From Streptomyces sp. NBC_00820 (lineage in GTDB: Bacteria; Actinomycetota; Actinomycetes; Streptomycetales; Streptomycetaceae), in contig NZ_CP108882.1 of assembly GCF_036347055.1 (NCBI RefSeq), positions 4,313,501-4,377,500 on the forward strand: DNA of 64,000 bases, given 5' to 3'. A model generated the notes under the pieces. The model saw only the letters and a list, made by a program, of their open reading frames with translations, did no database searches and was not told the DNA's origin. Made by a program: the position numbers and the translations under genes. Each line of letters begins with the position of its first letter. The first letter of the stretch is position 1. This document shows, in pieces, positions 45,403 to 64,000 of this stretch.

Positions 45403-46611
45403 TCAGTCCACCCCGGCCGCCGACCGCAGGCGGTCCGCGCGGTCGGTGCGCTCCCAGGTGAAGTCGGGCAGGTCCCGGCCGAAGTGGCCGTAGGCGGCGG
45501 TCTGGGCGTAGATCGGGCGCAGGAGGTCCAGGTCGCGGACGATGGCGGCCGGGCGCAGGTCGAAGACCTCGGTCACCGCGTGCTGGATCCGCGCGACGGA
45601 CACGGTCTCCGTGCCGAAGGTCTCCACGAAGAGGCCGACCGGCGCGGCCTTGCCGATCGCGTAGGCCACCTGCACCTCGGCGCGCCGGGCCAGCCCGGCC
45701 GCCACGATGGTCTTGGCGACCCAGCGCATGGCGTACGCGGCGCTGCGGTCGACCTTGGAGGGGTCCTTGCCCGAGAAGGCGCCGCCCCCGTGCCGGGCCA
45801 TGCCGCCGTACGTGTCGATGATGATCTTGCGCCCGGTGAGTCCCGCGTCGCCCATCGGGCCGCCGATCTCGAAGCGGCCGGTGGGATTGACCAGCAGGCG
45901 GTAGCCCTCGGTGTCGATGCCGAGCGCGGCGAGTTCCGGCTCGACCACGTGCGTGCGGATGTCCGGCACCAGGGTGGAGCCGAGGTCGGTGCCGGCGGCG
46001 TGCTGCGTGGAGACGACCACGGTGTCGAGGCGGACCGGGCGGTCGCCGTCGTACTCGACGGTGACCTGCGTCTTGCCGTCGGGCCGCAGGTAGGGGAGCG
46101 TGCCGTCCTTGCGCACCGCGGAGAGCCGGTGGGCCAGCCGGTGGGCCAGGGTGATCGGCAGGGGCATGAGCTGGGGCGTCTCGTCACAGGCGTACCCGAA
46201 CATCAGCCCCTGGTCGCCCGCGCCCTGCCGGTCCAGTTCGTCCGCCGGGCCGCCGGCGTCCGTGGCCGTCCGTGACTCGTAGGCGCTGTCCACACCCTGT
46301 GCGATGTCGGGCGACTGGGCGCCGATGGACACGGATATCCCGCAGGAGTTGCCGTCGAAGCCCTTGAGCGAGCTGTCGTAGCCGATCTGGAGGATCTTGC
46401 TCCGGACCAGGGAGGCGATCGGGGCGTACGCGGTGGTCGTCACCTCTCCGGCGACATGCACCAGTCCGGTGGTGACGAGGGTCTCCACGGCGACCCGCGA
46501 GGACGGGTCCTCCTTGAGCAGCGCGTCGAGAACGGTGTCGCTGATCTGGTCGGCGATCTTGTCGGGGTGGCCTTCGGTCACGGACTCCGAAGTGAACAGA
46601 CGACGGGACAC
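45403..46611 (-). CDS. metK: S-adenosylmethionine synthetase
   Basis: Makes SAM from methionine and ATP. The 402-aa protein has all signatures: [20 protein letters not shown] (ATP and metal site), P-loop-like [20 protein letters not shown], and [19 protein letters not shown]. Nothing suggests inactivity. Its place at the edge of a cluster with at least four SAM-using proteins suggests a pathway-dedicated copy; in S. coelicolor the housekeeping metK is far from aspS/metG, but this genome's other copy cannot be checked here. It is downstream of the tautomerase and A-domain genes; the 171-bp gap before it is filled with TGGTCTC/CTGATGC repeats. Confidence 0.96.
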
Positions 46612-46647
46612 GGGGCTCCTCAGGGGTAGTGGCGCGCTCGTACGGGT

Positions 46648-46782: not shown

Positions 46783-47178
46783 CTAGGGGGCCACTCCGGC
46801 CGGATCCGGCGCGTCCCCCGCCCAGACGTCTCCCCGGACCAGCAACTCCCCGGCCACGGCCCGGTGCACGGCGAGGTAGACCTCCTCGGCCGGCACGTTC
46901 AGCAGGGTGCTCAGCTCGTCGCGCAGCATCCGCAGCAGCTGGGCCACCGTCTCCTGGGGGTACGACTCCTTGCAGGTGACGAAGCCGATGGGGGCGCACG
47001 GTCCCGAGGGTGCCCGCAGCCACTCCGGGCGGTGTGCCGCGTCGGGGTCGAGCCGCTGCCAGGTCACCCAGCAGTGCTCCTCGGCGATCCGCAGCAGCCC
47101 GGTGACCGCCTTGGCGATCCGGGCCAGCGCGGGACGCCCCGGGCTCGGGTCGGGCGACATGAGGGTGATGACGGGCAT
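46783..47178 (-). CDS. tautomerase-superfamily protein
   Basis: A 131-aa protein starting MPVITL, so the catalytic Pro1 of the 4-oxalocrotonate tautomerase/MIF superfamily would be exposed after Met removal. Two beta-alpha-beta halves are visible: PVITL...LARIAKAVTGLLRIAEEHCWVTWQRL and IGFVTCKESYPQETVAQLLRMLRDELSTLLNVPAEEVYLAVHRAV. This is the fused-dimer layout of MIF or cis-CaaD types. It may isomerise an enol/keto or dehalogenate/hydrate an acid; in this cluster it could act on an amino-acid precursor. The start at 47178 is preferred over 47217 because it exposes Pro2 and has GAGG upstream. Confidence 0.75.
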   Translation of the reverse strand: MPVITLMSPDPSPGRPALARIAKAVTGLLRIAEEHCWVTWQRLDPDAAHRPEWLRAPSGPCAPIGFVTCKESYPQETVAQLLRMLRDELSTLLNVPAEEVYLAVHRAVAGELLVRGDVWAGDAPDPAGVAP

Positions 47179-47293
47179 GGCACAGCACCTCTCTGGGGCG
47201 GGGCATGGGTTCTCCACCGGCGTTCCCCGCGGCCGCGCGCGGGGCGGGCGCAGGGGCGCCGGGACGGGACCGGGGGCGCCGGGACGGTGGCGG

Positions 47294-48922: not shown

Positions 48923-48991
48923 GGAAGGCCCCTCCAGATCTGCCGGGTTGACGAAGACCGGACCACCGGGAATCCACCGCGGTCCGCAGCA

Positions 48992-49021
48992 GGTATACGG
49001 GGCCGTTCCTTCCGGTGTCAC
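48992..49021 (-). promoter_or_regulatory. candidate promoter for the A-domain/tautomerase/metK genes
   Basis: Reading leftward: GTGACA (49021-49016), an 18-base spacer and TATACC (48997-48992), about 70 bases before the ATG. It sits in the 203-bp divergent control region of the cluster. Confidence 0.5.
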
Positions 49022-49050
49022 GTACCCGGTTCCGGGGACGGGGGGACGCG

Positions 49051-49080
49051 TTGACGTACCGGGCGACCGGTCGGGAGTCT
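49051..49080 (+). promoter_or_regulatory. candidate promoter for the rightward cluster operon
   Basis: TTGACG at 49051-49056 with GAGTCT after an 18-base spacer, about 45 bases before the first rightward ATG. The -35 is strong, the -10 weak, as expected for an activator-dependent (SARP-type) promoter. Confidence 0.45.
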
Positions 49081-49125
49081 GACGGGGGCCGTCACCCCGG
49101 CCATTTCTCAAGGGGGGTTTGTCCG

Positions 49126-49872
49126 ATGAGGGCCTTCAGACAGGAAGCCGGAGAGGCAGCGCCGGTCCTTCCCCGGCCGCTGCTGGCGGAGGACGCCGGC
49201 GGGGTCGAACTGCTCGACTACGACGCCGCGCCCGGGCTTCCCGGAGCCGGCGGAGCACCGGGCAGCATGCTCCTGCTGCACGGGTTCGGCGGGGACAAGG
49301 GGCAGTTGCGGCCGGTCGGCGACGCGCTGTGCCCGCAGGACTCGGTCGCCGTCTACCCCTCCCTGCGCGCCCACGGCGACAGCCACCAGCCCGCCTGGGG
49401 CTACTCCGTGCTGGACTTCGCCGCCGACCTGCACCGCATCGGCGACATCCTGCCGGGCGACCTGCACCTGGTCGGCTACTCGTACGGCGGGCTCGTGGCG
49501 GCCGTCTCCGCGGTCACCTGGGGCGCGTCCCGGGTGCGCAGCCTGGTGGTGATCGACCAGTCCTTCGACGCCCACCCCGACCTGCACGTGGCGGACGAGT
49601 GGGCCGAGGGCAGCCTGCTGCGCTGGACCTACGACTTCGGGCACCTCCCGGACCTGCTGGAACGGCTCGGCATCCCGGTCCTGGTCCTGGCCGCCGCCGA
49701 GAGCCGGAACATCCTGGCCGACGAGCGGGACCGCCTAGCCCGGCGCGACGACGCGTTCCTGCGGCTGGAACGCATCCAGGGCGCCCACGCCGACTGCCAC
49801 CGCAACACGGACGAGATCACCGCCGCCATGCGGGCCTTCTACCGGGACCGCTTCGAGAAGGAGACCCCGTGA
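49126..49872 (+). CDS. alpha/beta hydrolase (possible type II thioesterase-like)
   Basis: A 248-aa hydrolase: SMLLLHGFGGDKGQLRPV (oxyanion), PSLRAHGDSHQP, nucleophile elbow LVGYSYGGLVAAV, acid-side strand VLVLAAAESRNI and catalytic His region IQGAHADCHRNTDEI. First gene of the rightward operon; AAGGGGGG ribosome site. It overlaps the MFS gene by four bases. In an NRPS-like setting it may clear mis-loaded carrier proteins or hydrolyse a late intermediate; the sequence does not decide. Confidence 0.8.
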   Translation: MRAFRQEAGEAAPVLPRPLLAEDAGGVELLDYDAAPGLPGAGGAPGSMLLLHGFGGDKGQLRPVGDALCPQDSVAVYPSLRAHGDSHQPAWGYSVLDFAADLHRIGDILPGDLHLVGYSYGGLVAAVSAVTWGASRVRSLVVIDQSFDAHPDLHVADEWAEGSLLRWTYDFGHLPDLLERLGIPVLVLAAAESRNILADERDRLARRDDAFLRLERIQGAHADCHRNTDEITAAMRAFYRDRFEKETP

Positions 49873-51107
49873 AAGCCTCCTTCGTCGAGGAAGGACCCGC
49901 GCGCACCCTGGTCCTGGGCACACTCGCCAACTCCCTCGGAAACGGTGCGTTCCTGACCTGCTCCGCGCTCTACTTCGTGCGGATCGCGGGCTTTTCGCCG
50001 GGGCGCCTCGGCCTCGGGCTCAGCATCGCCGGCGTCGCGGGCCTGTTCGCCGGAGTCCCGCTCGGCCACCTCGCCGACCGCAGGGGACCGCGCGGCACCT
50101 CGGCGGCGCTCCTGATCCTGGCCGGCCTCGCCACCGCCGCGTACCTCACGACCGACTCCTACCCCGCGTTCGTCACGATCGCCTTCCTGTACGCCCTGTT
50201 CGAGCGGGGCGCGCACGCGGCGCGGCAGGCGCTGATCCCGGGCGTGCTGAGCGGCGAGAGCCTCGTCCGGGTCCGCGCCAAGATCCGCGTGGTCACCAAC
50301 GCGGGTGTGTCCCTGGGCGCCGCGCTGGGCGGTCTCGCCCTGCTGTGGGACACCAGAGCCGCCTACCAGCTCACCTTCGCCGTGAACGCGCTGAGCTTCG
50401 TCGTGTGCGGGCTGCTCTTCCTGCGCCTGCCCGCCGTGCCCCGCTCGCCCGAACGCCGGGCCGGCGAACCACGGCTCGCGGTGCTGCGCGACACCCCGTA
50501 CGCGGTCCTCGCGCTGATCAACATGGTGATGCTGCTGCACATCCCGATCCTGGAGGTCGTCCTCCCGCTCTGGATCGCGCTGCGCACCGACGCGCCCCAC
50601 TCGCTCACGGCACTGCTGCTGCTGTGCAACACCCTCGCCGTCGTCGCCCTCCAGGTGCCCGTCACCAAGCGGATCGACGCTCTGGAGCCGGCCGTCCGCG
50701 CGTTCCGGCTGGCCGGTGTGGCCCTGCTCGGCTGCTGTGCCGCCTTCGCCCTGTCCTCGGGCCGCGGTCCGGTGACGGCGACGGCCGTGCTGGTGGTCGC
50801 CGCGGCCCTGCACGTGTACGGCGAGATGGTGCAGTCGGCCGGCTCCTGGCTGATCGGCTACGAACTGGCTCCCGCCGACCGGCAGGGCCAGTACCAGGGC
50901 CTGTTCAACACCGGGATAGCCGCCGTGCAGATGTTCGGCCCGCTCTCGCTGACCCTGCTCCTCATCGACTGGGGCACGCCCGGCTGGCTGGTGCTCGGCG
51001 CGGTGTTCCTGGCCGGCGGCCTGTCGATGGCACCGGCCGTCCGCTGGGCACAGAGCCGCCGCGCCGGCGTCGCCCGGACCGGCCCGGCACCGGCCACCAC
51101 CGCCTGA
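49869..51107 (+). CDS. MFS exporter
   Basis: A 412-aa major facilitator with 12 predicted TM helices. The motif A-like loop GVPLGHLADRRGPRGTS lies between TM2 and TM3. YQLTFAVNALSFVVCGLLFL and the second-half RQGQYQGLFNTGIAAVQMFGP are typical of the drug-exporter group. GTGA overlap with the hydrolase stop implies translational coupling. It probably exports the cluster product or gives self-resistance. The C-terminus lies in a 13-bp tandem repeat that copies the stop codon. Confidence 0.88.
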   Translation: MKASFVEEGPARTLVLGTLANSLGNGAFLTCSALYFVRIAGFSPGRLGLGLSIAGVAGLFAGVPLGHLADRRGPRGTSAALLILAGLATAAYLTTDSYPAFVTIAFLYALFERGAHAARQALIPGVLSGESLVRVRAKIRVVTNAGVSLGAALGGLALLWDTRAAYQLTFAVNALSFVVCGLLFLRLPAVPRSPERRAGEPRLAVLRDTPYAVLALINMVMLLHIPILEVVLPLWIALRTDAPHSLTALLLLCNTLAVVALQVPVTKRIDALEPAVRAFRLAGVALLGCCAAFALSSGRGPVTATAVLVVAAALHVYGEMVQSAGSWLIGYELAPADRQGQYQGLFNTGIAAVQMFGPLSLTLLLIDWGTPGWLVLGAVFLAGGLSMAPAVRWAQSRRAGVARTGPAPATTA

Positions 51108-51151
51108 ACGGCCGCCTGAGCGGTCCGCCTGAGCGGTTCGCCCGAACGGTC
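51101..51151 (+). repeat. 13-bp tandem repeat CGCCTGAGCGGTC over a stop codon
   Basis: Four units; the first holds the MFS TGA stop and the second and third each carry another TGA. Confidence 0.85.
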
Positions 51152-51191
51152 CGAGGGACCGGCAGTACGACATCACCTGATGGGGGAGACG

Positions 51192-52274
51192 ATGGCAACC
51201 CGGGAATCCACCACGGCGCCGACCACCGGCCTCGGCCGCGACGGCGTCGAACTCCAGCTGTGCGACGTGTGGCGCAGGCTGCTCGGCCGCACCGACGTCG
51301 GCATCCACGACGACTTCTTCTCGCTCGGCGGGCACTCGCTGCTCGCCATCAAGCTGACCGTGGAGGTGCGCAGGCTCTTCCAGGTCGACCTCACCGCCGC
51401 CGACCTGCTGTCCGCCGCCACCGTCGCCGAACTGGCCGAGATCGTCCGCCGCGGCACCGCCGACCACCAGGGCCAGCTGGTCCGCATCCAGGCCGGCTCC
51501 GGCGGCAGCCCCGTCTACGCCCTGCCCCCGGTCTCCGGGACCGTGCTGCTGTACCCGCCGATCGCCCGCGCCATGGGCACCGACCAGCCCTTCTGGGGCG
51601 TGCAGTCGGTCGGACTGCTACCGGGCGAGGAGCCCCTCACCTCGATCGAGGAGATCTCCGAGACCTTCATCGAGCAGCTGCGCACCGTCCACCCCGAGGG
51701 CGCCGAGTGGAACCTGATCGGCTACTCCATGGGCGGCCTGCTGGCCTACGAGACCGCCCGCCGGCTGAAGGAACGCGGCGAGCGCGTCGGCCTCGTCGGA
51801 CTGCTCGACACCCGCGTCACCGTCGAACCCAGTGCCGACCCGGACTTCGCCCTGCGCGCCCTGCTCTGGCGGGGACTCAGGCTCGACGTCGACATCGACT
51901 GGCTGCGCGGCCTGGACCCGCGGACCAGGGCGGCCGAGCTGGTCCGGCGGTCCGTCGCCGCCGGGACCATGCCCGCCGACTTCGACGCCGACCGCCTGCG
52001 CCGCATGATCGACATGTACGGCTTCAACCTCGACGCCCTCGCCGCCTACCGGATCAAGCCCTACGACGGCACGGTCACCGTCTTCCGCGTGACCGACCGG
52101 TCCATGGAGGACGGCACGCTCCCCGACGACCTCGGATGGGGCGACCTCGCCGCCCACGCGGCCGTCGTCGACGTACCCGGCGACCACTTCACCATGGTCG
52201 AACCCGGCCAGGTCGAGGTCCTGGGCCGCCGGCTGCGCGAGCGGCTCGGCCCCGCGCCCGTGCCCACGGCCTGA
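51192..52274 (+). CDS. peptidyl carrier protein-thioesterase didomain
   Basis: A 360-aa NRPS termination module. Residues 15-92: carrier domain with phosphopantetheine Ser49 in DDFFSLGGHSLLAIKL. Residues about 100-350: type I thioesterase with nucleophile Ser179 in LIGYSMGGLLAYETA, acid in VGLLDTR, and His in VPGDHFTMVEPGQ. There is no condensation domain, so chain extension must come from elsewhere (ATP-grasp enzymes nearby) or the domain acts as a loading platform for amino-acid modification. Ribosome site GGGGGAG. 84 bp after the MFS gene, 35 bp before the TrmO-like gene. Confidence 0.93.
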   Translation: MATRESTTAPTTGLGRDGVELQLCDVWRRLLGRTDVGIHDDFFSLGGHSLLAIKLTVEVRRLFQVDLTAADLLSAATVAELAEIVRRGTADHQGQLVRIQAGSGGSPVYALPPVSGTVLLYPPIARAMGTDQPFWGVQSVGLLPGEEPLTSIEEISETFIEQLRTVHPEGAEWNLIGYSMGGLLAYETARRLKERGERVGLVGLLDTRVTVEPSADPDFALRALLWRGLRLDVDIDWLRGLDPRTRAAELVRRSVAAGTMPADFDADRLRRMIDMYGFNLDALAAYRIKPYDGTVTVFRVTDRSMEDGTLPDDLGWGDLAAHAAVVDVPGDHFTMVEPGQVEVLGRRLRERLGPAPVPTA

Positions 52275-52309: not shown

Positions 52310-52864
52310 ATGCCCCCACAGCAGGAGCAGGAGCACGACCGGGAGCCGGAGCACGAGCAGGAGCGCGACCGGGACCGGCAGCCCGGCTCACCTCCCGCCT
52401 CGTACACCCTGCGGCCGATCGGTGTCGTCCGCTCGCCCCGCGCGGTGCCGGAGCACGACCACTGGGGCGGGGTCACCGCGCTCATCGAGCTGGACCCCGC
52501 TGTGCTGCGCCCCGAGGCCGTGACCGGTCTCGAGCTCTTCTCCCACCTCGAAGTGGTCTTCCACTTCCACCTCGTGCCCGAGTCCGACACCGTCACCGGA
52601 GCGGTCCACCCCCGCGGCCGTACCGACCTGCCGCGCCTCGGCATCCTCGCCCAGCGGCTCAAGGAACGCCCCAACCGGCTCGGCGTCTCCCGCTGCGAGC
52701 TGGTCGGCGTCGACGGACTCACCCTGCGCGTCCGGGCCCTCGACGCCCTGGACGGCACCCCGGTCCTCGACGTCAAGCCGTACCAGAGGCTCTTCCAGCC
52801 GGACCCGGCCGCCGTGCGCGAACCGCCCTGGCTGCACGAGGCGATGTCCGCCTACTACGCCTGA
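52310..52864 (+). CDS. TrmO (TsaA/YaeB) family SAM-dependent methyltransferase, copy 1
   Basis: A 184-aa protein of the TrmO beta-barrel methyltransferase family. Signatures: LRPIGVVRSPRAVPEHDHWG, ELFSHLEVVFHFH, HPRGRTDLPRLGILAQRLKERPNRLGVSRCEL and DALDGTPVLDVKPY. True TrmO methylates t6A37 in tRNA. A 28-residue highly charged leader (EQEHDREPEHEQERDRDRQ) is not part of the family. About 5 kb downstream lies a second homologue, so a role in the pathway rather than tRNA is likely. 35 bp after the PCP-TE gene; ribosome site GGAAGGGAA. Confidence 0.88.
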   Translation: MPPQQEQEHDREPEHEQERDRDRQPGSPPASYTLRPIGVVRSPRAVPEHDHWGGVTALIELDPAVLRPEAVTGLELFSHLEVVFHFHLVPESDTVTGAVHPRGRTDLPRLGILAQRLKERPNRLGVSRCELVGVDGLTLRVRALDALDGTPVLDVKPYQRLFQPDPAAVREPPWLHEAMSAYYA

Positions 52865-55540: not shown

Positions 55541-56724
55541 ACGGCGTCGACCTGCGGGCCAGACAGGCCCTCGCCGAGCAGATCCGTGAGGACTCCTGGG
55601 AGGCACAGCTCAGCATCGGCGTGGCCGCTTACCCCGTGCCGGGCGGCCGCTGCCGGGTGGACACCGAGCCGATGCGGCTCGGCTCGACCCGGGTCGCGCG
55701 GGCCTTCGGCATCGAGCAGCGCTGCGAGGACACCGCCGGCGGCGACGTCCTCGACCCCGTCGGGTCGCTGCTCGTGGCGCTCGGCGCGTCCGTCGCGGAC
55801 AGCGTCGTCACGGCGCTGACCGGCGAGGGGTGCGGTCCCTCGGTCGTCGAGGTGCTGCCCTGCGCCTGGTTCCCCGCCGGGCCGCCCGACGGGGAACCAG
55901 GCGAGGACGGTCCGGCCCGGCTGTCGTACGAGATCCGGATCGAAGGGGACGTCTCGGCCGGACAGGCCCGGCGGGCGGTAGCGGCGGCGTGCGCGCGCGG
56001 CAGCGCCCATCGCACCCTCGCGGAGCCGAACGAGATCCGGGCCGTCGTGCAGACCGCCCGGGACGTGCACCTCACCAGCCGCCCGGTCCCCGCCCCGGCG
56101 CAGCCGCGCCCGGCGGTCCGGCGGCGCACGGCCCGGGTGACGTGGGAGGTGGGCACCCATGTGCTCGCCGAGGTGGACGGCGTACGCGCCGAGTCCGACC
56201 AGCCCAAGCAGCTCTTCGGCGCCGATCTCGCGCCCAGCGCCCAGGAGTACGTCCTGGCCGCCCTGGCGGCCGAGGCACTGCGGTACTCGGCGGACTCCGG
56301 CCCGGCCGCGGACGGACCGCCCGCCTCGGTCCACAGCTCCGGCCGCGTCGACCTGCGCGGCCCCTACACCGCGGGCGACGCCCCGGCCGGACTGCGCAAC
56401 ATCCTCGTCCAGCTGCTGCCCGCCGACCCCGCCGCCACGGGCGACGCCTCCGCCTCCGCCGGGGACGGGGACGGGGACGGGGACGGCGAGGGGGCGACCG
56501 GTCCCGTCGCGGCCATGCGCCGCTGGCTCGCCGAGGGCGACGCCCTGCGCCTGGTCAGGGACGCCCACCCGATCGCCGTCTCCCTGGTGCTGGACGGCAC
56601 CCCCGTCGCACTTCCGGCGGAGGGAACCGGCGAGACGCACCACCCGGACCACGCGAGCGACTCGCACAACTCGCACGACACGTACGACACGCACGACACG
56701 AAGGAGCGGCACCGTGCCCCGTGA
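55534..56724 (+). CDS. tandem OsmC-like protein without catalytic cysteines
   Basis: A 396-aa protein with two OsmC-type halves. Half 1 (about 20-180): DPVGSLLVALGASVADSV, with Ser86 where peroxiredoxin-type OsmC has Cys, then RLSYEIRIEGDVSAGQARRA. Half 2 (about 198-385): VTWEVGTHVLAEVDG, QLFGADLAPSAQEYVLAALAAEAL, with Glu247 at the Cys position. A DGDGDGDG linker and a His/Asp tail (HPDHASDSHNSHDTYDTH) are unusual and could bind metal. The fold assignment is by eye. GGAGGAG ribosome site; overlaps neighbours on both sides (7 and 11 bp), so it is made in step with the PLP-fold and methyltransferase proteins. Confidence 0.6.
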   Translation: MLNGVDLRARQALAEQIREDSWEAQLSIGVAAYPVPGGRCRVDTEPMRLGSTRVARAFGIEQRCEDTAGGDVLDPVGSLLVALGASVADSVVTALTGEGCGPSVVEVLPCAWFPAGPPDGEPGEDGPARLSYEIRIEGDVSAGQARRAVAAACARGSAHRTLAEPNEIRAVVQTARDVHLTSRPVPAPAQPRPAVRRRTARVTWEVGTHVLAEVDGVRAESDQPKQLFGADLAPSAQEYVLAALAAEALRYSADSGPAADGPPASVHSSGRVDLRGPYTAGDAPAGLRNILVQLLPADPAATGDASASAGDGDGDGDGEGATGPVAAMRRWLAEGDALRLVRDAHPIAVSLVLDGTPVALPAEGTGETHHPDHASDSHNSHDTYDTHDTKERHRAP

Positions 56725-57466
56725 ATGGGACGCCAAGACGTACGACTCGCTTCCCCTGCCCCACCAGCAGTGGGGCAAGCGCACCCTCGGCCGGCTGGAC
56801 CTCAAGGGCCACGAGACCGTCCTCGACGCCGGCTGCGGCACCGGGCGCGACACGGCCGCGCTGCTCGACCTGGTGCCGGACGGCCGGGTGATCGCCGTCG
56901 ACGGGTCCAGCCGGATGCTCGAACAGCTCCGGACGAAACTGGCCGACCGCCTCGACCGGCTCGAGGTCCTCGAGGCCGACCTCACCCGGCCGCTGCCGTT
57001 CACCGGCCAGGTCGACGCGATCACCAGCGTGGCCACCTTCCACTGGATCACCGACCACGCCGCGCTCTTCACCAACCTCGCCCGGCAGTTGCGGCCGGGC
57101 GGCCGGTTCGTCGCCGAATGCGGCGGCCAGGGCAACGTCGCGAGGATCAACGCCGCCGTCGAGGAGGTGCTCGGCGCCCCGCCCGCCCAGAAGGAGAAGG
57201 TCTGGTACTTCGCCGGGATCGAGGAGACCACCGAGCGGCTGCGCGCGGCCGGCTTCACCGACATCGAGGTCAGCCTGCTGCCCGACCCGGCACGGCTGGA
57301 GCCGGGCGAGCAGCTGTGGAGCTACCTGGCCACCGTCGTCCTCGGCTCCCACCTGGACCGCCTGCCCGAGGCCGTGCACGAGGAGTTCGTGCACGCGGTC
57401 GCCGCCCGGCTGCCCGAGCCCGTCGTCGACTACGTCCGGCTGAACATCACCGCCAGCCGGGCCTAG
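56714..57466 (+). CDS. class I SAM-dependent methyltransferase
   Basis: A 250-aa methyltransferase of trans-aconitate methyltransferase-like type: PREWDAKTYDSLPLPHQQWG, motif I TVLDAGCGTGRDTAALL, motif II VIAVDGSSRMLEQLR, post-motif VDAITSVATFHWITDH and LRPGGRFVAECGGQGN. GTG start with AAGGAG seven bases upstream, overlapping the OsmC-like gene by 11 bp. In CC-1065/yatakemycin-type pathways a HemN-like radical SAM enzyme works with such a methyltransferase to close a cyclopropane; co-occurrence here makes that worth testing. The stop codon is copied in a downstream repeat. Confidence 0.88.
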   Translation: MPREWDAKTYDSLPLPHQQWGKRTLGRLDLKGHETVLDAGCGTGRDTAALLDLVPDGRVIAVDGSSRMLEQLRTKLADRLDRLEVLEADLTRPLPFTGQVDAITSVATFHWITDHAALFTNLARQLRPGGRFVAECGGQGNVARINAAVEEVLGAPPAQKEKVWYFAGIEETTERLRAAGFTDIEVSLLPDPARLEPGEQLWSYLATVVLGSHLDRLPEAVHEEFVHAVAARLPEPVVDYVRLNITASRA

Positions 57467-57561
57467 AGCCGAACCGCCCGCCGGGCCTAGCCCGAACCGC
57501 CCGCCGGGCCTGGCTGGAACCGCCCGTCCCCTCCCCGAACCACCCGTCCCCTCCCCGAACC
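57457..57561 (+). repeat. 23-24 bp and 20 bp tandem repeats after the methyltransferase stop
   Basis: CCGGGCCTAG-N3-CGAACCGCCCG-type units at 57457-57480, 57481-57503 and 57504-57526; the first two contain TAG (the first is the real stop). They are followed by two TCCCCTCCCCGAACC(A/G) units. Confidence 0.85.
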
Positions 57562-57574
57562 GAAGGAGGCTCTC

Positions 57575-58936
57575 ATGGGGCACCCCGCTCCGCCCACGCT
57601 CCTGGTCGTCCACGACCAGGGCTCCGCCGGCCCCCTGCGCATCCTGTCGGCGGCTCGGGGACTGTGCCGGATCGTCTTCCTCTGCGAGGCGGAACACCCG
57701 CTGCTCGCACCCGAGTTGCGGCAGATCGCGGCACACGCGGACGTCGTGGACATCACCGGCCTCGACGAGGGGGAGGTGGGCGGCCTCGCCGCGCGGCTGG
57801 CGCCGGACGGCATCGTCACCTTCAGCGAGCACCGCCTGCGGCTCACCGCCGCGGTGGCCGCCCGCTGCGGGCTGCCCTTCCACTCCGCCGAAACCGCCGC
57901 CGCCCTCACCGACAAGTACCGCCAGCGGCAGGCGCTGGCGGCGGGCGGCGTCCAGGACACCGGCTGTGTCCTGGTCCGGCACCCGGACGAGTCCGCCGCC
58001 GCCCTCGCCGTCACGGGCACCCCCGCGGTGCTCAAGCCGCGGCACGGCGCGGGCAGCGTGGACACCTGCCTGGTCGGCTCGGCCGCCGAATGCCGCGACC
58101 GGCTGGCCGAGTTCACCGAGGCGGAGCCCCGGAAGTCCGTCCAGGAGTCCGCCAGAGAGTCCGCCCCGGAGCCCGTCCGGGAGTTCGTCCTGGAGGAGTA
58201 CCTGCGCGGGGATCCCGCGCTCGCCGCGTCGGGATGGGGCGACTTCGTCTCCGTGGAGTCCCTGGTCGTCGACGGCGAGCCCCGGACCGTCGCCGTCACC
58301 GGCAAGCCCCCGCTCGTCCCGCCGTTCCGGGAGACCGGGCACATCCTGCCCGCGCCCCTGACGTCCGCGACCGCCGCGGACGTCGTACGGCTGGAACAGC
58401 GGGCGCTCAGGGCGCTCGGCATCCGGCACGGCGTCACCCACACCGAGGTCAAACTCACCGCCGACGGACCCCGGATCATCGAGGTCAACGGGCGGCTGGG
58501 CGGTTTCATCGCCGAGATCGTGCAACGCCGCACGGGATTCGACATGGTGGCGGCCGCGCTGCGCCTGGCGCTCGGACTCCCCGTCACAGCCCCCGAGCCG
58601 CCGGCCCCGGGCCCGGCGGCCGGGGCGGTGGCCTTCCAGTACCTGCTGATCCCGCCCGCCGGCCCGGTGCGCCCGGGACCGCTCTCGCTCATCGAGACGC
58701 TGGAGGAGATCCCCGGGATCGACCTGGTCGACGTCAGCGCGCCGAAGGAGCCGGGGCGAGGGGACGCCGACGGCAGCTGGCGCCGGGGCACCCTCGGCGC
58801 GATCGGCGTCGTATACGGGACCGCCCCCGACCATGCCCAACTCGCCGGACTTCTGCGCCTGTTGGAGGAACGGATGGACCGTTTCTGGTACGGCGCCCCC
58901 GACGCGGACCCTGCAGTACGCTCGGGCGCCGCGTGA
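57575..58936 (+). CDS. ATP-grasp ligase
   Basis: A 453-aa ATP-grasp enzyme of the L-amino-acid ligase/carboxylate-amine ligase type. The N-terminal Rossmann-like region holds LLVVHDQGSAGPLRILSAA. The ATP-binding part has TDKYRQRQALAAGG, PAVLKPRHGAGSVDTC and EFVLEEYL. Magnesium ligands are intact in HTEVKLTADGPRIIEVNGR (Glu291, Glu303, Asn305), followed by RLGGF. It joins a carboxylate to an amine via acyl phosphate, so it may make a peptide bond in place of a condensation domain. GAAGGAGG ribosome site, 108 bp after the methyltransferase gene. Confidence 0.92.
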   Translation: MGHPAPPTLLVVHDQGSAGPLRILSAARGLCRIVFLCEAEHPLLAPELRQIAAHADVVDITGLDEGEVGGLAARLAPDGIVTFSEHRLRLTAAVAARCGLPFHSAETAAALTDKYRQRQALAAGGVQDTGCVLVRHPDESAAALAVTGTPAVLKPRHGAGSVDTCLVGSAAECRDRLAEFTEAEPRKSVQESARESAPEPVREFVLEEYLRGDPALAASGWGDFVSVESLVVDGEPRTVAVTGKPPLVPPFRETGHILPAPLTSATAADVVRLEQRALRALGIRHGVTHTEVKLTADGPRIIEVNGRLGGFIAEIVQRRTGFDMVAAALRLALGLPVTAPEPPAPGPAAGAVAFQYLLIPPAGPVRPGPLSLIETLEEIPGIDLVDVSAPKEPGRGDADGSWRRGTLGAIGVVYGTAPDHAQLAGLLRLLEERMDRFWYGAPDADPAVRSGAA

Positions 58937-59016
58937 CACACGAACCGCGGAGGCCGGGCGCGGAGCAACCGCACGGTCCTCACTCCACGAATCTCTGCGA
59001 AAGGCAGGCACGGCAG

Positions 59017-59499
59017 ATGTCCGAGAACAGCGCCACGGCCGAAGTGATCTCCCGCCCGGTGGGCCACGTGGTCGGTGGCCGGGAAGAGGTCCGCGACGAC
59101 GACTGGGGACAGGTCTCGGCCGTGATCCGCCTGGACGGCACCCAGTACGAGCCGGACGCGCTGGCCGGCCTGGACTCCTTCTCCCACCTGGAGGTCGTCT
59201 ACCACTTCGACCGGGTACCCGTGGCGAAGATCGAGTCCGGCGCCCGTCATCCGCGAGGCAACACCGAGTGGCCCCTGGTCGGCATCTTCGCCCAGCGCGG
59301 CAAGAACCGCCCCAACCGCATCGGCGTCTCCCGCTGCCGCCTGGTCAAGGTCGAGGGCCTCGACATCCACGTCGAGGGCCTCGACGCCGTCGACGGCACC
59401 CCCGTCCTCGACATCAAGCCCTACATGAGCGAGTTCGGCCCCCAGGGCCCCACCACCCAGCCCGACTGGGCCACCGAGATCATGCGCCGCTACTACTGA
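59017..59499 (+). CDS. TrmO (TsaA/YaeB) family SAM-dependent methyltransferase, copy 2
   Basis: A 160-aa TrmO-family protein without the charged leader of copy 1. Core: SRPVGHVVGGREEVRDDDWG, LDSFSHLEVVYHFDRVP, RHPRGNTEWPLVGIFAQRGK, NRPNRIGVSRCRLVKVEG, DAVDGTPVLDIKPYMSEFGP. It is similar in length to minimal family members. The two copies differ throughout, so this is not a recent duplication. They may form a heterodimer, because TrmO works as a dimer. 80 bp after the ATP-grasp gene, 62 bp before the ATP-grasp-like gene. Confidence 0.9.
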   Translation: MSENSATAEVISRPVGHVVGGREEVRDDDWGQVSAVIRLDGTQYEPDALAGLDSFSHLEVVYHFDRVPVAKIESGARHPRGNTEWPLVGIFAQRGKNRPNRIGVSRCRLVKVEGLDIHVEGLDAVDGTPVLDIKPYMSEFGPQGPTTQPDWATEIMRRYY

Positions 59500-59561: not shown

Positions 59562-60815
59562 GTGAACGGCAATCCACGGCGGGCACTGCTCCTGAGTCCC
59601 GACGCCGGGGTGCGCGAGGCGGCGGCCACGGCGGGGCTCGACACCTGGTCGGTGACGAGTCCCGCCGCCGTCACGGTCGCCGGGCGGCACACCGGCCGGC
59701 GGGTGACCGTGGACCTCGGTGACGCGGACGCGCTGCACCGCGCCCTGGTGGACACGGCCCGCGCGCACGGGATCGGGCACATCGTGTACCTCGGGGACAC
59801 GGAGGCCCTCCACCTCGCCGTCGAGCGGGCCCTGCGCGAGCTGTCCCCGGGGCGGGCGGAGCCGCTGCGCAGGCTGCGTGACCCCGTGACCGTGCGGCGG
59901 ATCCTCAACCAGGGCGGCGTGTCCGTCGTACGGGCCGAACCGGCCGCCACCGTGGCGGACGTCCGCGCGCTCGTCGCCCGCTCACCCCTGCCCGTGGCCG
60001 TCAGGACCGCCCACGCGCCGAAGCCGACGGTCATACGGAGCGGGGCGGACCTGGAGACCTGGGCGGCCGGTGCCCCCGCCGGCCCCCACCTCGTCGAGCA
60101 GTTCCCGACCGGACCGCGGATCAGTGTGGACACGCTGACCCGCGACGGCATGCACGAGGTGACCGGCATGACCACCCGGCTCGCGGGCGGTGCCGGCCTG
60201 CTGCGCCCGGCCCCGCTGCCCGAGGCGGACCGGGCCGGGGTCCGCGGAACGGTCCGGGCCCTGCTGGACCTCGCCGGTCTGCAGAGCGGCCCCGCCCACA
60301 CACAGGTCGTCCTCACCGGGGACGGCCCCCGGATCACCGCGGCCAAGGCCCGCCTCGGAGCCCCCGCGATCCGCCGCCTCGCGCGCGCCTCCACCGGCCG
60401 AGCCCCGGAGCACGACGTGCTCTCGGCCCTGGCCGGAGCACCGCGGCCGCCCGCGTGGTCCACGCCGCCCGGCCGCCCCGCGGCCCTCGCCCGCCTGGCC
60501 CCGCACCACGGCGGACGGGGCCAGGCCGCGAACCTGGACGCCCTCGCCCGGCTCGGCCACGTCGACGACGTCCGGGTGGTCCCCGCCGCGGCCGGTGCCC
60601 CCGCCCACGTGGAGGTCATCGTCCACGGGAGCACGCCCGAGGAGGCGGAGGAACGGCTCGACGCCGTACGCCGAGGGTGGGCGGACCCGGCGCGGTGGGG
60701 CCCCGACACCCCGGACGAGAGGACGGGAACGAGACGGGACCGGGACGGTATGCGCCCGGCCGACGCTGAGGACCTCACCACAAGTGACAGACCACAGGTG
60801 CCGGACCACACGTGA
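59562..60815 (+). CDS. ATP-grasp-like protein with lost metal ligands
   Basis: A 417-aa protein aligning by eye with the ATP-grasp gene two places upstream: DPVTVRRILNQGGVSVV against DKYRQRQALAAGGVQDT, PVAVRTAHAPKP against VLKPRHGAG, HLVEQFPTGPRISVDTL against the EEYL strand, and HTQVVLTGDGPRITAAKAR against the metal-binding strand. Glu, Glu and Asn there become Gln248, Ala260 and Lys262, and the ATP lysine block is also altered. Probably catalytically dead or altered. GTG start with AAGGGGAG. The acidic/basic C-terminal tail ends inside the CAC-N2-GTG repeat array. No function can be assigned. Confidence 0.7.
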   Translation: MNGNPRRALLLSPDAGVREAAATAGLDTWSVTSPAAVTVAGRHTGRRVTVDLGDADALHRALVDTARAHGIGHIVYLGDTEALHLAVERALRELSPGRAEPLRRLRDPVTVRRILNQGGVSVVRAEPAATVADVRALVARSPLPVAVRTAHAPKPTVIRSGADLETWAAGAPAGPHLVEQFPTGPRISVDTLTRDGMHEVTGMTTRLAGGAGLLRPAPLPEADRAGVRGTVRALLDLAGLQSGPAHTQVVLTGDGPRITAAKARLGAPAIRRLARASTGRAPEHDVLSALAGAPRPPAWSTPPGRPAALARLAPHHGGRGQAANLDALARLGHVDDVRVVPAAAGAPAHVEVIVHGSTPEEAEERLDAVRRGWADPARWGPDTPDERTGTRRDRDGMRPADAEDLTTSDRPQVPDHT

Positions 60816-60916: not shown

Positions 60917-61066
60917 ATGCGCAGCATGCTGGCCAGGTTCGCAGGGGTCCTCGCGGCGGCGGCCCTGGTGCTCGGCGCGACCGCGGCGGCGGGCTCGTCC
61001 GCCGGCGGAGCGCACGGCCACCACGTGAGCGCGGACAACCAGGGTCCCACCGTGGTCAGGGCCTGA
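60917..61066 (+). CDS. small secreted peptide (49 aa)
   Basis: A 49-aa reading frame with excellent ribosome site (AAGGAG, 4 bases before ATG). N-terminus MRSMLARFAGVLAAAALVLG is a clear signal peptide with cleavage likely near ATAAAGSSAG. The mature part is short and hydrophilic (AHGHHVSADNQGPTVVRA). It is directly downstream of the CAC-N2-GTG array and its last 11 bp overlap the converging SARP gene. It could be an extracellular signal, a chaperone-like peptide or a product precursor; no known family recognised. Confidence 0.7.
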   Translation: MRSMLARFAGVLAAAALVLGATAAAGSSAGGAHGHHVSADNQGPTVVRA

Positions 61067-64000
61067 GACCACCCTCGCCGGCCGGCGCGGGACAGCCCAG
61101 CGAGGCGAGCAGCGCCGTCGCGGCCGACCGGTGTTCCCGGGCCAGTACCGGATCACCGAGCGCCTCCACCGCCCGTGCCATCCCGCGCAACGCCCGTGCC
61201 CGCTCCGCCCGGTACCGGATGGCGGTGGCGAGCTCGCAGGCGTGCGTGTGCAGGGACAGGGCCCGCTCGTGGTCCTCGCGCCGCCGGCAGAACTCGCCGA
61301 GCAGGTTCTCGACCTTCGCCTGCCGGGTGGGGCTGCCGCTGACACGGGCCAGCTCCAGCGCCCGGGCCGCGAAACCGGTCGCCTCCGACCGGCGCCCCAG
61401 GCACTCGGCGACCTCGGCGGACAGGGCCAGGGCCAGGGCGACATCACCCGGCGGGCTCGACGCGTCGCACAGCGCGCGGGCCTCCTCCAGACAGGCGCCG
61501 GCGTCCGCGTACGCGCCCAGACCGATGTGGGCGAAGGCCAGATCGGTCAGCGCCATCACATGGTTGTCGCGGTAGTCGAAGCCGCGGTGCAGCTCCAGCG
61601 CCCGCCGCGCCGCCGCGGCCGCCTCCGGGTACCTGCCCCACTGCGCGTACAGCGTGCTGAGGTTGGTGAGCGTCTCGGCCTCCGCCCGCGGGACGTCCAG
61701 CTCCCGTTCCAGGCCGATGGCCCGCTCCAGGTGCGCGAGCGCCTCCGTGTGCCGGCCGAGCACGGTCAGCAGCAGCCCGATCGTGGACTCGCCGTGCGCC
61801 TCGGTGTGCTGGTCCCGCAGACGTACGGCGACGTCCCGCGCCTCCGTGGCCACCGCCAGCCCCTCGTCGAAGTTCCCCAGCTTCCAGCACGCGACACCGA
61901 GGTTGGACAGGCTGACACCGAGCAGGGCCACGTCCTGAAGCCGCCGCGCGGCCTCCACCGCGATCCGTCCGACGTCCCTGAACTCCTCGAACTGCCCCCG
62001 GGCGTTGAGCCGGAAGATGATGTTGCGGGTGAGGCACACCGTGTGGCGGTCCAGGCCGCGGCGGTGGGCCAGGGAGATCGCCGCGACCAGGTTGTCGTGC
62101 TCCCGGTCGAACCACCGCGCCGCCCGCTCCGCGTCCGGGAACGGCGGCTGCTCGCCGACATAGGGAGGTATGCCCGTCGCGCGGCGCCTGCGGCCGCTGA
62201 AGAGCAGCTCGCACACCGTCTCGGTGGTCGTGACGTAGTAGCCCAGCAGACGCTCCACGGCAGCGGCGTCGTCCTCGCCCGTGTCCGGACCGCACTGGCC
62301 GCGCGCGAAACTGCGCACCAGGTCGTGGAACCGGTACAGGCCGATGGCGGGCTGCTGCAGCAGGTGCACGTCCAGCAGCCGTTCCAGGACGGCCTCCGCC
62401 TCGTGCCGGCCCGTACCGAGCAGCGCGGCGGCCGCGTACGCGTCGATGTCGGCACCGGGATACAGCCCCAGGATGCGCAGGGCGACGCGGTGCTCCTCGT
62501 CCATGACCTGGTACGACAGCCGCAGGGACGCCGCGACGCTGCGCTCCCCCGCGCTCAGCTCCTCCAGCCGGCGGGTCTCGTCCCGCAGCCGGTCGACCAG
62601 GTACTCCACGGTCCACCGCGGCCGGTTGCGCAGCCGGGCGGCCACGATGCGCAGCGCCAGGGGGAGCCGGCCGCACAGATGCACCAGCTCCGCCGTCGCC
62701 GCCGGCTCGGCAGCGACGCGCGTAGCGCCGAGGATCTCCTCGATCAGCAGCGTGCTGTCCTCGTGGGACATCGGGCCGATCGAGAACCACTCGGCCCCGT
62801 CGAGGTCGACCAGCCGGGCCCGGCTGGTGATCAGGACCAGACAGCCGGGCGCGGCGGGCAGCAGCGGCAGGACCTGTCCGACGTCGATGACGTTGTCGAT
62901 CAGCAACAGCAGGCGGCGCCGGGCGAGGTGGGAGCGCCACAGCGCCGTCCGGGCCTGGACGCCGTCCGGTATCCGGTCGCCCGGCGTGCCGATCGCCCGG
63001 AGCAGGGTGTCCAGCGCGGTCGCCGGGGACACCGGTGACTCACCGGGCGTGAAACCGCGCAGGTCGAGATGGAGCTGCCCGTCCGGGAAGTCCGCGGCCA
63101 CCTGATGGGCGGCCCGTACGGCGAGCGAGGTCTTGCCGCTGCCTCCCATGCCGTCGATCGCCACGATCCGGCTGGAGCGCTGCCCCTCCTCCCGGCCGCC
63201 CCTGACACAGTCGACCAGGGCGTCCAGCTCCCGCTTGCGGCCGGTGAAGTCGCACAGGTCGGACGGCAAGGTACACGGAACGTGGGCGGACTCGGCCCGG
63301 GCGACGGCACTCGGGGCGGGGACGGTCAAGGCGGCGGCTGGCGGAGCGGGGGCCGAATCCGCCGTCGTGGGGGCGGCCGTCGAGGGTGCGGCGTCAGTGG
63401 GGGCGGCCGGTGTCGCGGGCGGGCCGGCGGACGGCCGGGCCGGGAACGCGGGCGAGGTCAGCTCCGGGGCCTCGCGCAGGATCGCGGCGTACAGCTCGCT
63501 CAGCCGGGGACCGGGGTCGATGCCGAGCTCCTCCAGCAGCAGCTCGCGGACCCTCTGGTACTCCTCCAGGGCCTCCGCCTGCCGGCCGCTGCGGTAGAGC
63601 GCCAGCATCAGCCGCGCCCGCAGGGTCTCACGCAACGGCTTCTGGGCGATGAGGTCCCGCAGGTCGCCGATCAGCTCCCCGGCCTCACCCAGATCGAGAC
63701 GCAGTTCGAAGAACCGCTCGGCCGCCGCCAGCCGGCGCTCGTCCAGCGCGGTACCGGCTGCCTGGATCAGGGCGCTTCCCGCGCCCGCCATGACGGGGCC
63801 GCGCCACAGCGCGAGCGCGCGGCGCAGCGCCTCAGCGGCCGTACCGGGGCTGCCCTCGGACAGGGCGCGGGACGCCTCGCCCATATAAGAGGTGAACTCG
63901 GTCAGGTCCAGTTCGGCGCCGGACACCACCGCGCGGTACCCCGGACCGTCGGTGACGATCACCCGGGCCCCGCCCGGAACCCGTCGGCGCAGATCGGCCA
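61056..64000 (-). CDS. SARP/AfsR-type pathway regulator (5' end outside window)
   Basis: At least 980 residues, partial: the N-terminal DNA-binding winged helix is cut off by the window end. Visible order: bacterial transcriptional activator domain (BTAD: LDLTEFTSYMGEASRAL, LIAQKPLRETLRARLMLALY, LLEELGIDPGPRLSELYAAIL), an Ala/Pro linker, an NB-ARC/STAND ATPase with Walker A IDGMGGSGKTSLA and Walker B region RLLLLIDNV, then about 380 residues of TPR repeats (LSNLGVACWKLGNFDEGLAV and others). AfsR-type activators switch on biosynthetic clusters, binding direct repeats near the -35. Its stop overlaps the converging peptide gene by 11 bp. Confidence 0.95.
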   Translation of the reverse strand, partial: ADLRRRVPGGARVIVTDGPGYRAVVSGAELDLTEFTSYMGEASRALSEGSPGTAAEALRRALALWRGPVMAGAGSALIQAAGTALDERRLAAAERFFELRLDLGEAGELIGDLRDLIAQKPLRETLRARLMLALYRSGRQAEALEEYQRVRELLLEELGIDPGPRLSELYAAILREAPELTSPAFPARPSAGPPATPAAPTDAAPSTAAPTTADSAPAPPAAALTVPAPSAVARAESAHVPCTLPSDLCDFTGRKRELDALVDCVRGGREEGQRSSRIVAIDGMGGSGKTSLAVRAAHQVAADFPDGQLHLDLRGFTPGESPVSPATALDTLLRAIGTPGDRIPDGVQARTALWRSHLARRRLLLLIDNVIDVGQVLPLLPAAPGCLVLITSRARLVDLDGAEWFSIGPMSHEDSTLLIEEILGATRVAAEPAATAELVHLCGRLPLALRIVAARLRNRPRWTVEYLVDRLRDETRRLEELSAGERSVAASLRLSYQVMDEEHRVALRILGLYPGADIDAYAAAALLGTGRHEAEAVLERLLDVHLLQQPAIGLYRFHDLVRSFARGQCGPDTGEDDAAAVERLLGYYVTTTETVCELLFSGRRRRATGIPPYVGEQPPFPDAERAARWFDREHDNLVAAISLAHRRGLDRHTVCLTRNIIFRLNARGQFEEFRDVGRIAVEAARRLQDVALLGVSLSNLGVACWKLGNFDEGLAVATEARDVAVRLRDQHTEAHGESTIGLLLTVLGRHTEALAHLERAIGLERELDVPRAEAETLTNLSTLYAQWGRYPEAAAAARRALELHRGFDYRDNHVMALTDLAFAHIGLGAYADAGACLEEARALCDASSPPGDVALALALSAEVAECLGRRSEATGFAARALELARVSGSPTRQAKVENLLGEFCRRREDHERALSLHTHACELATAIRYRAERARALRGMARAVEALGDPVLAREHRSAATALLASLGCPAPAGEGGLRP

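What the first reader, a model, noticed from the sequence alone, without database searches (positions are those of the whole stretch)
45403..64000. Candidate biosynthetic gene cluster with an unfamiliar, SAM-heavy enzyme set
One stand-alone A domain, a PCP-TE didomain, a HemN-like radical SAM enzyme, a class I methyltransferase, two TrmO-family proteins, an ATP-grasp ligase, several apparent pseudoenzymes, an MFS exporter, a tautomerase and a local metK lie beside a SARP regulator. I cannot match this combination to a cluster I know. The likely product is a small modified amino acid or dipeptide carrying SAM-derived carbon, loaded on one carrier protein and joined by ATP-grasp chemistry.
Basis: partly seen in the sequence, partly recalled or inferred. 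Interest (0 to 1): 0.87.

Follow-up and report, generated by a model that had tools for sequence, protein, structure and literature searches.

The report
SAM-heavy dipeptide cluster with dead enzymes
A rare bacterial gene set, found together in three genera, is predicted to load a valine-like amino acid on a carrier protein, remodel it with carbon from S-adenosylmethionine and likely join it to a second amino acid; part of its enzyme set recurs beside likely ribosomal-peptide genes, which suggests a reusable chemistry.

Summary
[quoted passage not shown] Nine of these genes recur in all 11 other carrier-type loci examined (Streptomyces, Streptacidiphilus, Actinoplanes); the radical SAM gene is rare (9 of 392 sampled genomes of the genus, own included). 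Three further Streptomyces loci share the radical SAM enzyme, a fused tautomerase-TrmO and an exporter, beside a SPASM radical SAM enzyme and a likely precursor peptide. The Streptacidiphilus locus shows no ATP-grasp gene; a PCP-C protein and an A domain with a threonine-type code lie there instead, which supports a dipeptide. Six of seven NocN (class C methylase) residues tested are kept, among them one that is His in HemN. Best reading: an NRPS-like pathway, undescribed as far as my searches reach, that adds SAM-derived carbon to a valine-like residue and couples it to a second amino acid. No product is known; the chemistry, above all the TrmO/tautomerase step, is inferred.

The parts
45403..46581 (-). 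metK, second S-adenosylmethionine synthetase of the genome (accessory)
   Evidence: TIGR01034 527.8 bits, cut-off 309.4; 84% identical to the other copy; seen in 6 of 12 loci
46783..47178 (-). Tautomerase-superfamily protein (cis-CaaD/Cg10062-like) with N-terminal Pro
   Evidence: AF2 pLDDT 81.5, Foldseek Cg10062 E 4.1e-8; fused to TrmO in L009, L025, L011, L012, L024
47294..48916 (-). Stand-alone adenylation domain, pocket code D-A-L-(L or W)-Y-G-G-V-F (Val-like by recall)
   Evidence: Pfam AMP-binding 8.4e-64; TIGR01733 336.6 bits over cut-off 317.4; code extraction
49126..49872 (+). alpha/beta-hydrolase with GYSYGG motif
   Evidence: Pfam Abhydrolase_1 1.4e-11; motif
49869..51107 (+). MFS exporter
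   Evidence: Pfam MFS_1 5.8e-28
51180..52274 (+). PCP-thioesterase didomain, active Ser of both domains and the thioesterase His present
   Evidence: Pfam PP-binding and Thioesterase; motifs LGGHSL, GYSMGG, GDH
52310..52864 (+). TrmO1: stand-alone TrmO_N SAM-binding domain
   Evidence: Pfam TrmO_N 7.1e-25; PDB relatives 1xqb, 7btu, 2nv4
53013..54485 (+). HemN-like radical SAM enzyme, class C methylase-like (CX3CX2C; Tyr70, Tyr129, Arg188, Arg206, Asp230, Arg264)
   Evidence: Pfam Radical_SAM; HutW 143.7 bits, HemN 99 bits, none over cut-off; PDB HemN 1olt 75.2 bits and NocN 9p2u 61.5 bits; residue test
54482..55540 (+). Cystathionine gamma-synthase/methionine gamma-lyase-fold protein, N-terminally short, PLP lysine replaced by Pro
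   Evidence: Pfam Cys_Met_Meta_PP 1.2e-49 from model position 56; alignment to 5dx5; 0 of 12 loci with Lys
55534..56724 (+). Tandem OsmC-like protein without active cysteine
   Evidence: 37 proteins found in the protein collection
56714..57466 (+). Class I SAM methyltransferase, intact SAM-binding motif
   Evidence: Pfam Methyltransf_25 6.2e-21; 68-88% identical in 11 other loci; alignment
57575..58936 (+). ATP-grasp ligase, BacD-like, predicted peptide-bond former
   Evidence: Pfam ATP-grasp_4 2.7e-12; BacD 3wnz 1.2e-22; IIEVNGRLGG motif
59017..59499 (+). TrmO2: stand-alone TrmO_N domain
   Evidence: Pfam TrmO_N 1.9e-27; the own-genome search found two TrmO_N genes, TrmO1 and TrmO2
59610..60815 (+). 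Degenerate ATP-grasp paralogue (accessory; also in L003)
   Evidence: alignment to the ATP-grasp ligases, ENG motif replaced; seen in 2 of 12 loci
61056..63962 (-). AfsR-like SARP regulator (BTAD, NB-ARC, TPR)
   Evidence: Pfam; NCBIfam AfsR 509.7 bits, cut-off 1430, so not AfsR itself; 79% identical at the same place in L003

Best explanation
The block at 46783-59499 is a conserved NRPS-like gene cluster that would load a likely valine-like amino acid on the PCP of the PCP-TE protein, where it is predicted to be remodelled with one-carbon units from SAM before it is released and likely joined by the ATP-grasp ligase to a second amino acid as an exported dipeptide. Inferred mechanism, step by step. 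(1) The A domain activates Val or a similar beta-branched residue and loads the PCP. (2) The HemN-like enzyme works as a class C radical SAM methylase: one SAM makes the 5'-deoxyadenosyl radical, which takes a hydrogen from the methyl group of a second SAM; the SAM methylene radical adds to an sp2 carbon of the substrate. (3) The class I methyltransferase encoded in the same coupled gene string finishes the reaction, most simply by ring closure to a cyclopropane as in CC-1065, otherwise by a further methylation. (4) The lysine-less PLP-fold protein and the OsmC-like protein, whose genes lie between these two and which were seen only in the carrier-protein type of cluster, act as non-catalytic substrate- or carrier-docking partners. 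(5) Tautomerase and TrmO, fused in some clusters, act in series: proton shift to an enol- or imidate-like form, then methyl transfer. (6) TE release, ATP-grasp ligation, MFS export; the extra metK supplies SAM. Shown: gene content, synteny, kept or lost catalytic residues, the fusions, and in L009 the PCP-C and A genes where other loci have the ATP-grasp gene. Inferred: every reaction and the product.
For: Conservation as a unit: A, hydrolase, MFS, PCP-TE, TrmO1, rSAM, PLP-fold, OsmC-like and MT genes in 12 of 12 carrier-type loci (window included), ATP-grasp in 11, TrmO2 in 11, tautomerase in 10 (L010 read). Coupling by called starts: rSAM and PLP-fold genes overlap or lie within 2 bp in 12 of 12, PLP-fold and OsmC-like genes overlap in 11 of 12. 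Class C residues: NocN Tyr34, Tyr96, Arg153, Arg171, Asp196 and Arg230 are kept and invariant in 15 of 15 rSAMs, Ser225 is Thr in 15 of 15; the Tyr96 position is His in HemN. PMC12871812 (passages) says Tyr96 binds SAM II in NocN and that the contact of Arg230 is not seen in HemN. The HutW profile scores above HemN. A HemN-like rSAM plus a methyltransferase is a demonstrated cyclopropanase (PMC6050322, passages). Dipeptide: BacD-like ligase; in L009 it is not seen in the 18 kb held, and PCP-C plus an A domain with code DFWNIGMVH (Thr by recall) follow the MT gene. Tautomerase-TrmO fusions in L009, L025, L011, L012, L024; 9 contig lengths are shared between an rSAM list and a TrmO list, 8 of them with fusions and one (P0230) with a stand-alone TrmO (36 of the 120 listed rSAM rows against 32 of the 120 listed TrmO rows, picked by eye).
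Against: No product, substrate or activity is known. HemN, not NocN, is the best PDB hit, and HemN shares five of the seven NocN positions tested, Ser225 included, so the class C call rests on few positions. The Val-like reading of the A-domain code is recalled; position 278 is L in the 12 loci of one alignment, while the stricter one resolved it in two loci only, L in L009 and W in L010. No gene plainly makes the sp2 carbon that a class C enzyme needs. In the ribosomal-type clusters the methyltransferase shares only 33% over 98 residues with the window's, so a fixed rSAM-MT pair is not shown across both types. In L010 no TrmO2 and no tautomerase are seen in the 21 kb held, and the A gene lies on the other side. 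8 of 33 full-length OsmC-like relatives keep a cysteine at the active position. TrmO's known substrate is tRNA, and term searches found no paper on a small-molecule TrmO (no paper held the terms together).
Confidence: 0.45

Rival explanations
1. The HemN-like enzyme keeps HemN-type chemistry: it oxidatively decarboxylates a propionate-like side chain (for example glutamate) to a vinyl group, giving a vinylglycine-type residue that the other genes elaborate.
For: HemN is the best PDB hit by sequence and shares five of the seven NocN positions tested; the likely precursor peptides of the ribosomal-type clusters end in VIEVEV or VIEVEI and so hold two glutamates near the end; the PLP-fold partner belongs to a family whose members handle vinylglycine-type intermediates (recalled).
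Against: The Tyr96 position follows NocN, not HemN, and the NocN Arg230 is kept; HutW outscores HemN; the PLP-fold protein lacks the catalytic lysine.
Confidence: 0.12
2. The TrmO proteins are not biosynthetic but act on tRNA-Thr t6A37, as a housekeeping or self-protection function placed in the cluster.
For: They are the two TrmO_N genes that the own-genome search found; TrmO relatives are plentiful (6470 of 8000 scored candidates pass, and many of the 120 listed are stand-alone proteins of Streptomyces, Kitasatospora and Actinoplanes); the Streptacidiphilus version has a threonine-type A domain.
Against: Both kinds of TrmO sit in 11 of 12 clusters, and TrmO is fused to a tautomerase in five loci, which fits small-molecule or peptide chemistry better.
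Confidence: 0.15
3. The cluster makes a compound that is already known but whose genes are described only in papers or databases I could not read.
For: Named carriers include known antibiotic producers such as S. griseofuscus and S. murinus (producer status recalled); MIBiG was not searchable and the paper library is open-licence only.
Against: Paper searches with the family names gave no match, judged from listings.
Confidence: 0.15
4. The PLP-fold and OsmC-like proteins are catalysts of an unrecognised kind (for example lysine-free PLP or PMP chemistry), not scaffolds.
For: The Asp of VDNT is kept in 12 of 12 loci and the Arg of the LVRLS-type stretch in 11 of 12, L009 being the exception; the second OsmC domain has a D(Q/R)PKQL(F/L)G motif in 33 of 33 full-length relatives, and 8 of 33 keep a first-domain cysteine.
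Against: The family match of the PLP-fold protein begins at model position 56, and Lys is Pro or Leu in 12 of 12.
Confidence: 0.2

Closest known systems
C10P/C10Q cyclopropanase of CC-1065 (PMC6050322, passages)
   Same: HemN-like radical SAM enzyme with a SAM methyltransferase encoded in the same cluster
   Different: Different substrate class (pyrrole-containing alkaloid), no PLP-fold, OsmC, TrmO or tautomerase partners that I know of (recalled); sequences of C10P and C10Q were not on hand for comparison
NocN/NosN class C radical SAM methylases (PDB 9p2u; PMC12871812, preprint, passages)
   Same: CX3CX2C and the Tyr34, Tyr96, Arg153, Arg171, Asp196, Arg230 positions kept
   Different: Low overall similarity (61.5 bits, mainly the radical SAM domain); no thiopeptide context
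Bacilysin-type dipeptide pathways (BacD ATP-grasp ligase)
   Same: BacD-like ATP-grasp ligase and MFS exporter beside enzymes for an odd amino acid
   Different: The amino acid would be built on a carrier protein with radical SAM chemistry rather than from prephenate (recalled)
TrmO, tRNA m6t6A37 methyltransferase
   Same: TrmO_N SAM-binding domain; TIGR00104 hits just under the cut-off (90.2 and 81.7 of 93.25 bits)
   Different: No C-terminal domain, two copies in one cluster, fused to a tautomerase in some relatives
cis-CaaD/Cg10062 tautomerase superfamily
   Same: Fold and N-terminal proline
   Different: About 20% identity, no Pfam hit, biosynthetic cluster context, fusion to TrmO

Membership tests
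Class C radical SAM methylase (HemN-like) | CX3CX2C cluster motif | tested here: met
   C76, C80, C83 align with NocN C40, C44, C47; shared by HemN too
Class C radical SAM methylase (HemN-like) | Residues that hold the second SAM (NocN Tyr34, Tyr96, Arg153, Asp196, Ser225) | tested here: met
   Four identical and invariant in 15 of 15, Ser225 is Thr in 15 of 15; of these four only the Tyr96 position differs in HemN (His)
Class C radical SAM methylase (HemN-like) | Transfers a SAM-derived carbon to an sp2 carbon | not testable with these tools
   needs an enzyme assay
HemN oxygen-independent coproporphyrinogen III oxidase | NCBIfam equivalog score over cut-off | tested here: not met
   TIGR00538 99 bits against cut-off 324.95
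PLP-dependent Cys/Met metabolism enzyme | Schiff-base lysine | tested here: not met
   Pro or Leu in 12 of 12 loci
OsmC/Ohr peroxidase | OsmC fold | tested here: inconclusive
   Pfam OsmC in 9 of 9 members at E up to 1, best 3.3e-9, window's own 0.24; Foldseek OsmC on top with E 9e-3 from a model of pLDDT 59; taken as likely
OsmC/Ohr peroxidase | Active cysteine pair | tested here: not met
   First-helix Cys absent in the window and in 25 of 33 full-length relatives, Cys at the second-domain position in 3 of 33 (4 of 37 short proteins left out)
TrmO tRNA methyltransferase | TIGR00104 equivalog cut-off | tested here: not met
   90.2 and 81.7 bits against 93.25
TrmO tRNA methyltransferase | TrmO_N domain over Pfam cut-off | tested here: met
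   87.9 and 96.3 bits against 26.8
Tautomerase superfamily | beta-alpha-beta fold and N-terminal Pro | tested here: met
ATP-grasp L-amino acid ligase | ATP-grasp fold with metal-binding E-x-N-G motif | tested here: met
   IIEVNGRLGG; BacD E 1.2e-22
ATP-grasp L-amino acid ligase | Ligates free amino acids | not testable with these tools
   needs an assay; the L009 locus supports the role indirectly
C10P/C10Q-type two-component cyclopropanase | Methyltransferase closes the ring with a catalytic His | not tested
   C10Q sequence not on hand; the MT has an invariant FHWI motif in the 12 loci aligned

The most novel reading that the evidence does not exclude
[quoted passage not shown] the tautomerase-TrmO fusion is a new kind of tautomerise-then-methylate enzyme, and in the carrier-bound version two catalytically dead proteins (lysine-less PLP fold, cysteine-less OsmC tandem) are the adaptor that presents the carrier-bound residue to a radical SAM/methyltransferase cyclopropanase.
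Probability: 0.3. Interest if true: 0.87.

Novelty: new variant of a known kind. Interest (0 to 1): 0.72.

Why it matters
If true, it would give the TrmO fold a role in natural-product biosynthesis, link it to tautomerase chemistry, and show one enzyme set serving both carrier-protein and ribosomal pathways. The OsmC-like tandem family (37 proteins found in the protein collection) is a ready genome-mining handle, and natural variants (ATP-grasp against C-A domains, fused against separate tautomerase-TrmO) make the role of each part testable by comparison.

Tried and rejected
Rejected: HemN or HutW itself (scores far under cut-off). Rejected: a working PLP enzyme of the gamma-lyase family (no lysine). 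Left out as unprovable here: naming a product; 1-methylcyclopropylglycine was considered as a valine-plus-one-carbon candidate from recall, and a paper search (57 papers hold at least one term, 12 listed) showed only unrelated ones in the list. Rejected: a TRAM domain in the cluster (one search found one TRAM gene, elsewhere in the genome). One search read one locus only, because all ten were in one file; one search repeated it properly.

The Actinoplanes locus L010 was counted with TrmO1 only; its 52% 'TrmO2' hit is that same gene. The OsmC-like gene of L010 was called short by my script; tblastn shows a match starting next to the PLP-fold gene. In the cysteine count, 4 of 37 proteins (short or of other make-up) were left out.

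Full report
Observation. The window is part of an 8.1 Mb single-contig genome. Its genus is Streptomyces by inference: 'same genus' genome G310 gives the rSAM at the coordinates of the named Streptomyces locus L004. Three proteins have no Pfam hit at E up to 0.1: the tautomerase, the OsmC-like protein (55534-56724) and a degenerate ATP-grasp paralogue (59610-60815). The tautomerase was settled by structure: pLDDT 81.5, Cg10062 and cis-CaaD on top, best E 4e-8. The OsmC assignment is likely rather than settled: Pfam OsmC hits in 9 of 9 aligned members at E up to 1 (best 3.3e-9, window's own 0.24), and Foldseek hits with E 9e-3 at best from a model of pLDDT 59.

Conservation. A scan of genome contigs with the radical SAM protein gave 10 loci. 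Eight of the ten loci (L003-L010) and three further ones (L025-L027) are of the carrier type; with the window that makes 12. A, hydrolase, MFS, PCP-TE, TrmO1, rSAM, PLP-fold, OsmC-like and MT genes are in 12 of 12, in a constant order from the hydrolase to the MT; the A gene lies on the other side in L010. The ATP-grasp gene is in 11, TrmO2 in 11 (as a fusion in L009), the tautomerase in 10 (L005 begins inside the A gene; it is not seen in the 21 kb of L010), metK in 6, the ATP-grasp paralogue in 2. Identity to the window: rSAM 79-94%, MT 68-88%, PLP-fold 46-82%, OsmC-like 44-74%. Flanking genes differ between several loci, though some are alike (L006 and L007; L003 and the window on the SARP side), so the block behaves as a unit. 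A profile search for the OsmC-like family found 37 proteins; locus tags place it two genes from the rSAM in Actinoplanes ianthinogenes (GCM10010168_09410 and _09430) and A. capillaceus (Aca07nite_68920 and _68900).

A second type of cluster. L011, L012 and L024 (Streptomyces) have the HemN-like rSAM (58-62%), a fused tautomerase-TrmO, an MFS exporter (34-35%), an alpha/beta-hydrolase not detectably alike in sequence to the window's, a class I MT of another subfamily (33% over 98 residues for L011), a flavin monooxygenase, and, upstream, a SPASM radical SAM enzyme (L011: best NCBIfam hit mycofactocin maturase, 97.9 bits under a cut-off of 265) with a 52-73-residue open frame ending in VIEVEV or VIEVEI. 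The frame has a purine-rich upstream stretch and keeps its protein sequence in L011 against L024 (6 changed bases in synonymous codons, 1 in nonsynonymous); in the two comparisons with L012 the balance is the other way (4 to 8 and 5 to 6), so the precursor is likely, not proven. What the two types share firmly is rSAM, tautomerase and TrmO. Tautomerase and TrmO are also fused in two carrier-type loci, L009 and L025. In the protein collection, 9 contig lengths are shared between an rSAM list and a TrmO list, 8 with fusions and 1 with a stand-alone TrmO (36 of the 120 rSAM rows listed and 32 of the 120 rows listed were entered, picked by eye; a shared length is a sign of one contig, not proof).

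Radical SAM enzyme. Profile searches give HutW above HemW and HemN, all far below cut-off; in the PDB only HemN (75.2 bits) and NocN (61.5 bits) match. A preprint on NocN (PMC12871812, passages) names the residues that hold both SAM molecules. Of seven positions tested besides the cysteines, six are identical in the window protein and invariant in 15 of 15 relatives; Ser225 is Thr in 15 of 15. HemN has the NocN residue at five of the seven, so these alone do not decide. The Tyr96 position is His in HemN, and the alignment to HemN ends before the Arg230 position, whose contact the preprint says is not seen in HemN. This favours one-carbon transfer over HemN decarboxylation, on few positions. 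With a class I MT encoded in the same coupled string, the closest demonstrated system is C10P/C10Q (PMC6050322, passages).

Pseudoenzymes. The PLP-fold protein aligns with methionine gamma-lyases from residue 20 on, matches the family model only from position 56, and has Pro or Leu at the lysine position in 12 of 12 loci, while the Asp of VDNT is kept in 12 of 12. The OsmC-like protein has lost the first-domain cysteine in 25 of 33 full-length relatives, the window's included; 8 of 33 keep it, and the second domain has the motif D(Q/R)PKQL(F/L)G in 33 of 33. Both were seen only in the carrier type among the 15 loci, between rSAM and MT. I read them as docking partners; a catalytic role stays open.

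Carrier protein and ligase. The A-domain pocket reads D-A-L-(L or W)-Y-G-G-V-F in the window: position 278 is L in one alignment of all 12 loci, while a stricter one resolved it only in L009 (L) and L010 (W); reading the motif without a gap gives W. From recall the code is closest to valine codes. PCP and TE motifs are kept. The ligase is BacD-like with its metal motif. In L009 (Streptacidiphilus jiangxiensis) no ATP-grasp gene is seen in the 18 kb held, and a PCP-condensation protein and a second A domain lie directly after the MT gene; the code of the latter is DFWNIGMVH, the threonine code by recall. This is the strongest sign that the product is a dipeptide, and it names a partner residue for that one relative.

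TrmO. Both TrmO_N proteins lack a C-terminal domain, score just under the TrmO equivalog cut-off, and are the two TrmO_N genes found in the genome. A tRNA role cannot be excluded. Fusion to a tautomerase and presence in both types of cluster make a step on the growing product likelier; the order 'tautomerise, then methylate' is my inference.

Literature. No described match was found in eight term searches, judged from listings; passages were read of PMC9062424, PMC6050322, PMC10491745 and PMC12871812. PMC10491745 held neither TrmO nor tautomerase in its main text. MIBiG could not be searched.

Verdict. A real, rare, conserved and, as far as these searches reach, undescribed biosynthetic cluster: a new variant of NRPS-like dipeptide pathways, with an unusual SAM-based enzyme set that partly recurs in likely ribosomal-peptide clusters.

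Noticed in passing
L011:8252-16807, L012:8089-17054, L024:7931-16967: Likely ribosomal-peptide clusters: SPASM radical SAM enzyme, short frame ending VIEVEV or VIEVEI, HemN-like rSAM, hydrolase, MT, fused tautomerase-TrmO, MFS and flavin monooxygenase.
   Followed up: partly
L009:11172-14644: PCP-condensation protein and A domain with a threonine-type code where other loci have the ATP-grasp ligase.
   Followed up: yes
rSAM relatives P0028, P0061, P0101: Relatives of the HemN-like enzyme at 53-59% identity in Bacillus toyonensis, Burkholderia thailandensis and Photorhabdus laumondii, named only radical SAM or coproporphyrinogen oxidase-family protein; their gene neighbourhoods were not seen.
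   Followed up: no
beyond the right end of the window (own contig, L001:5500-7307): LSU and 5S ribosomal RNA matches lie within some 7 kb of the SARP gene, so the cluster sits near an rRNA operon.
   Followed up: no
window 38193-40470 and 40521-45335: Response regulator and histidine kinase pair, an epimerase-family protein, an 852-residue protein with weak Ig-like hits and an MHYT protein left of metK.
   Followed up: no
second OsmC-like domain, window 55534-56724 (residues 222-229): D(Q/R)PKQL(F/L)G motif in 33 of 33 full-length relatives although the cysteines are mostly gone.
   Followed up: partly
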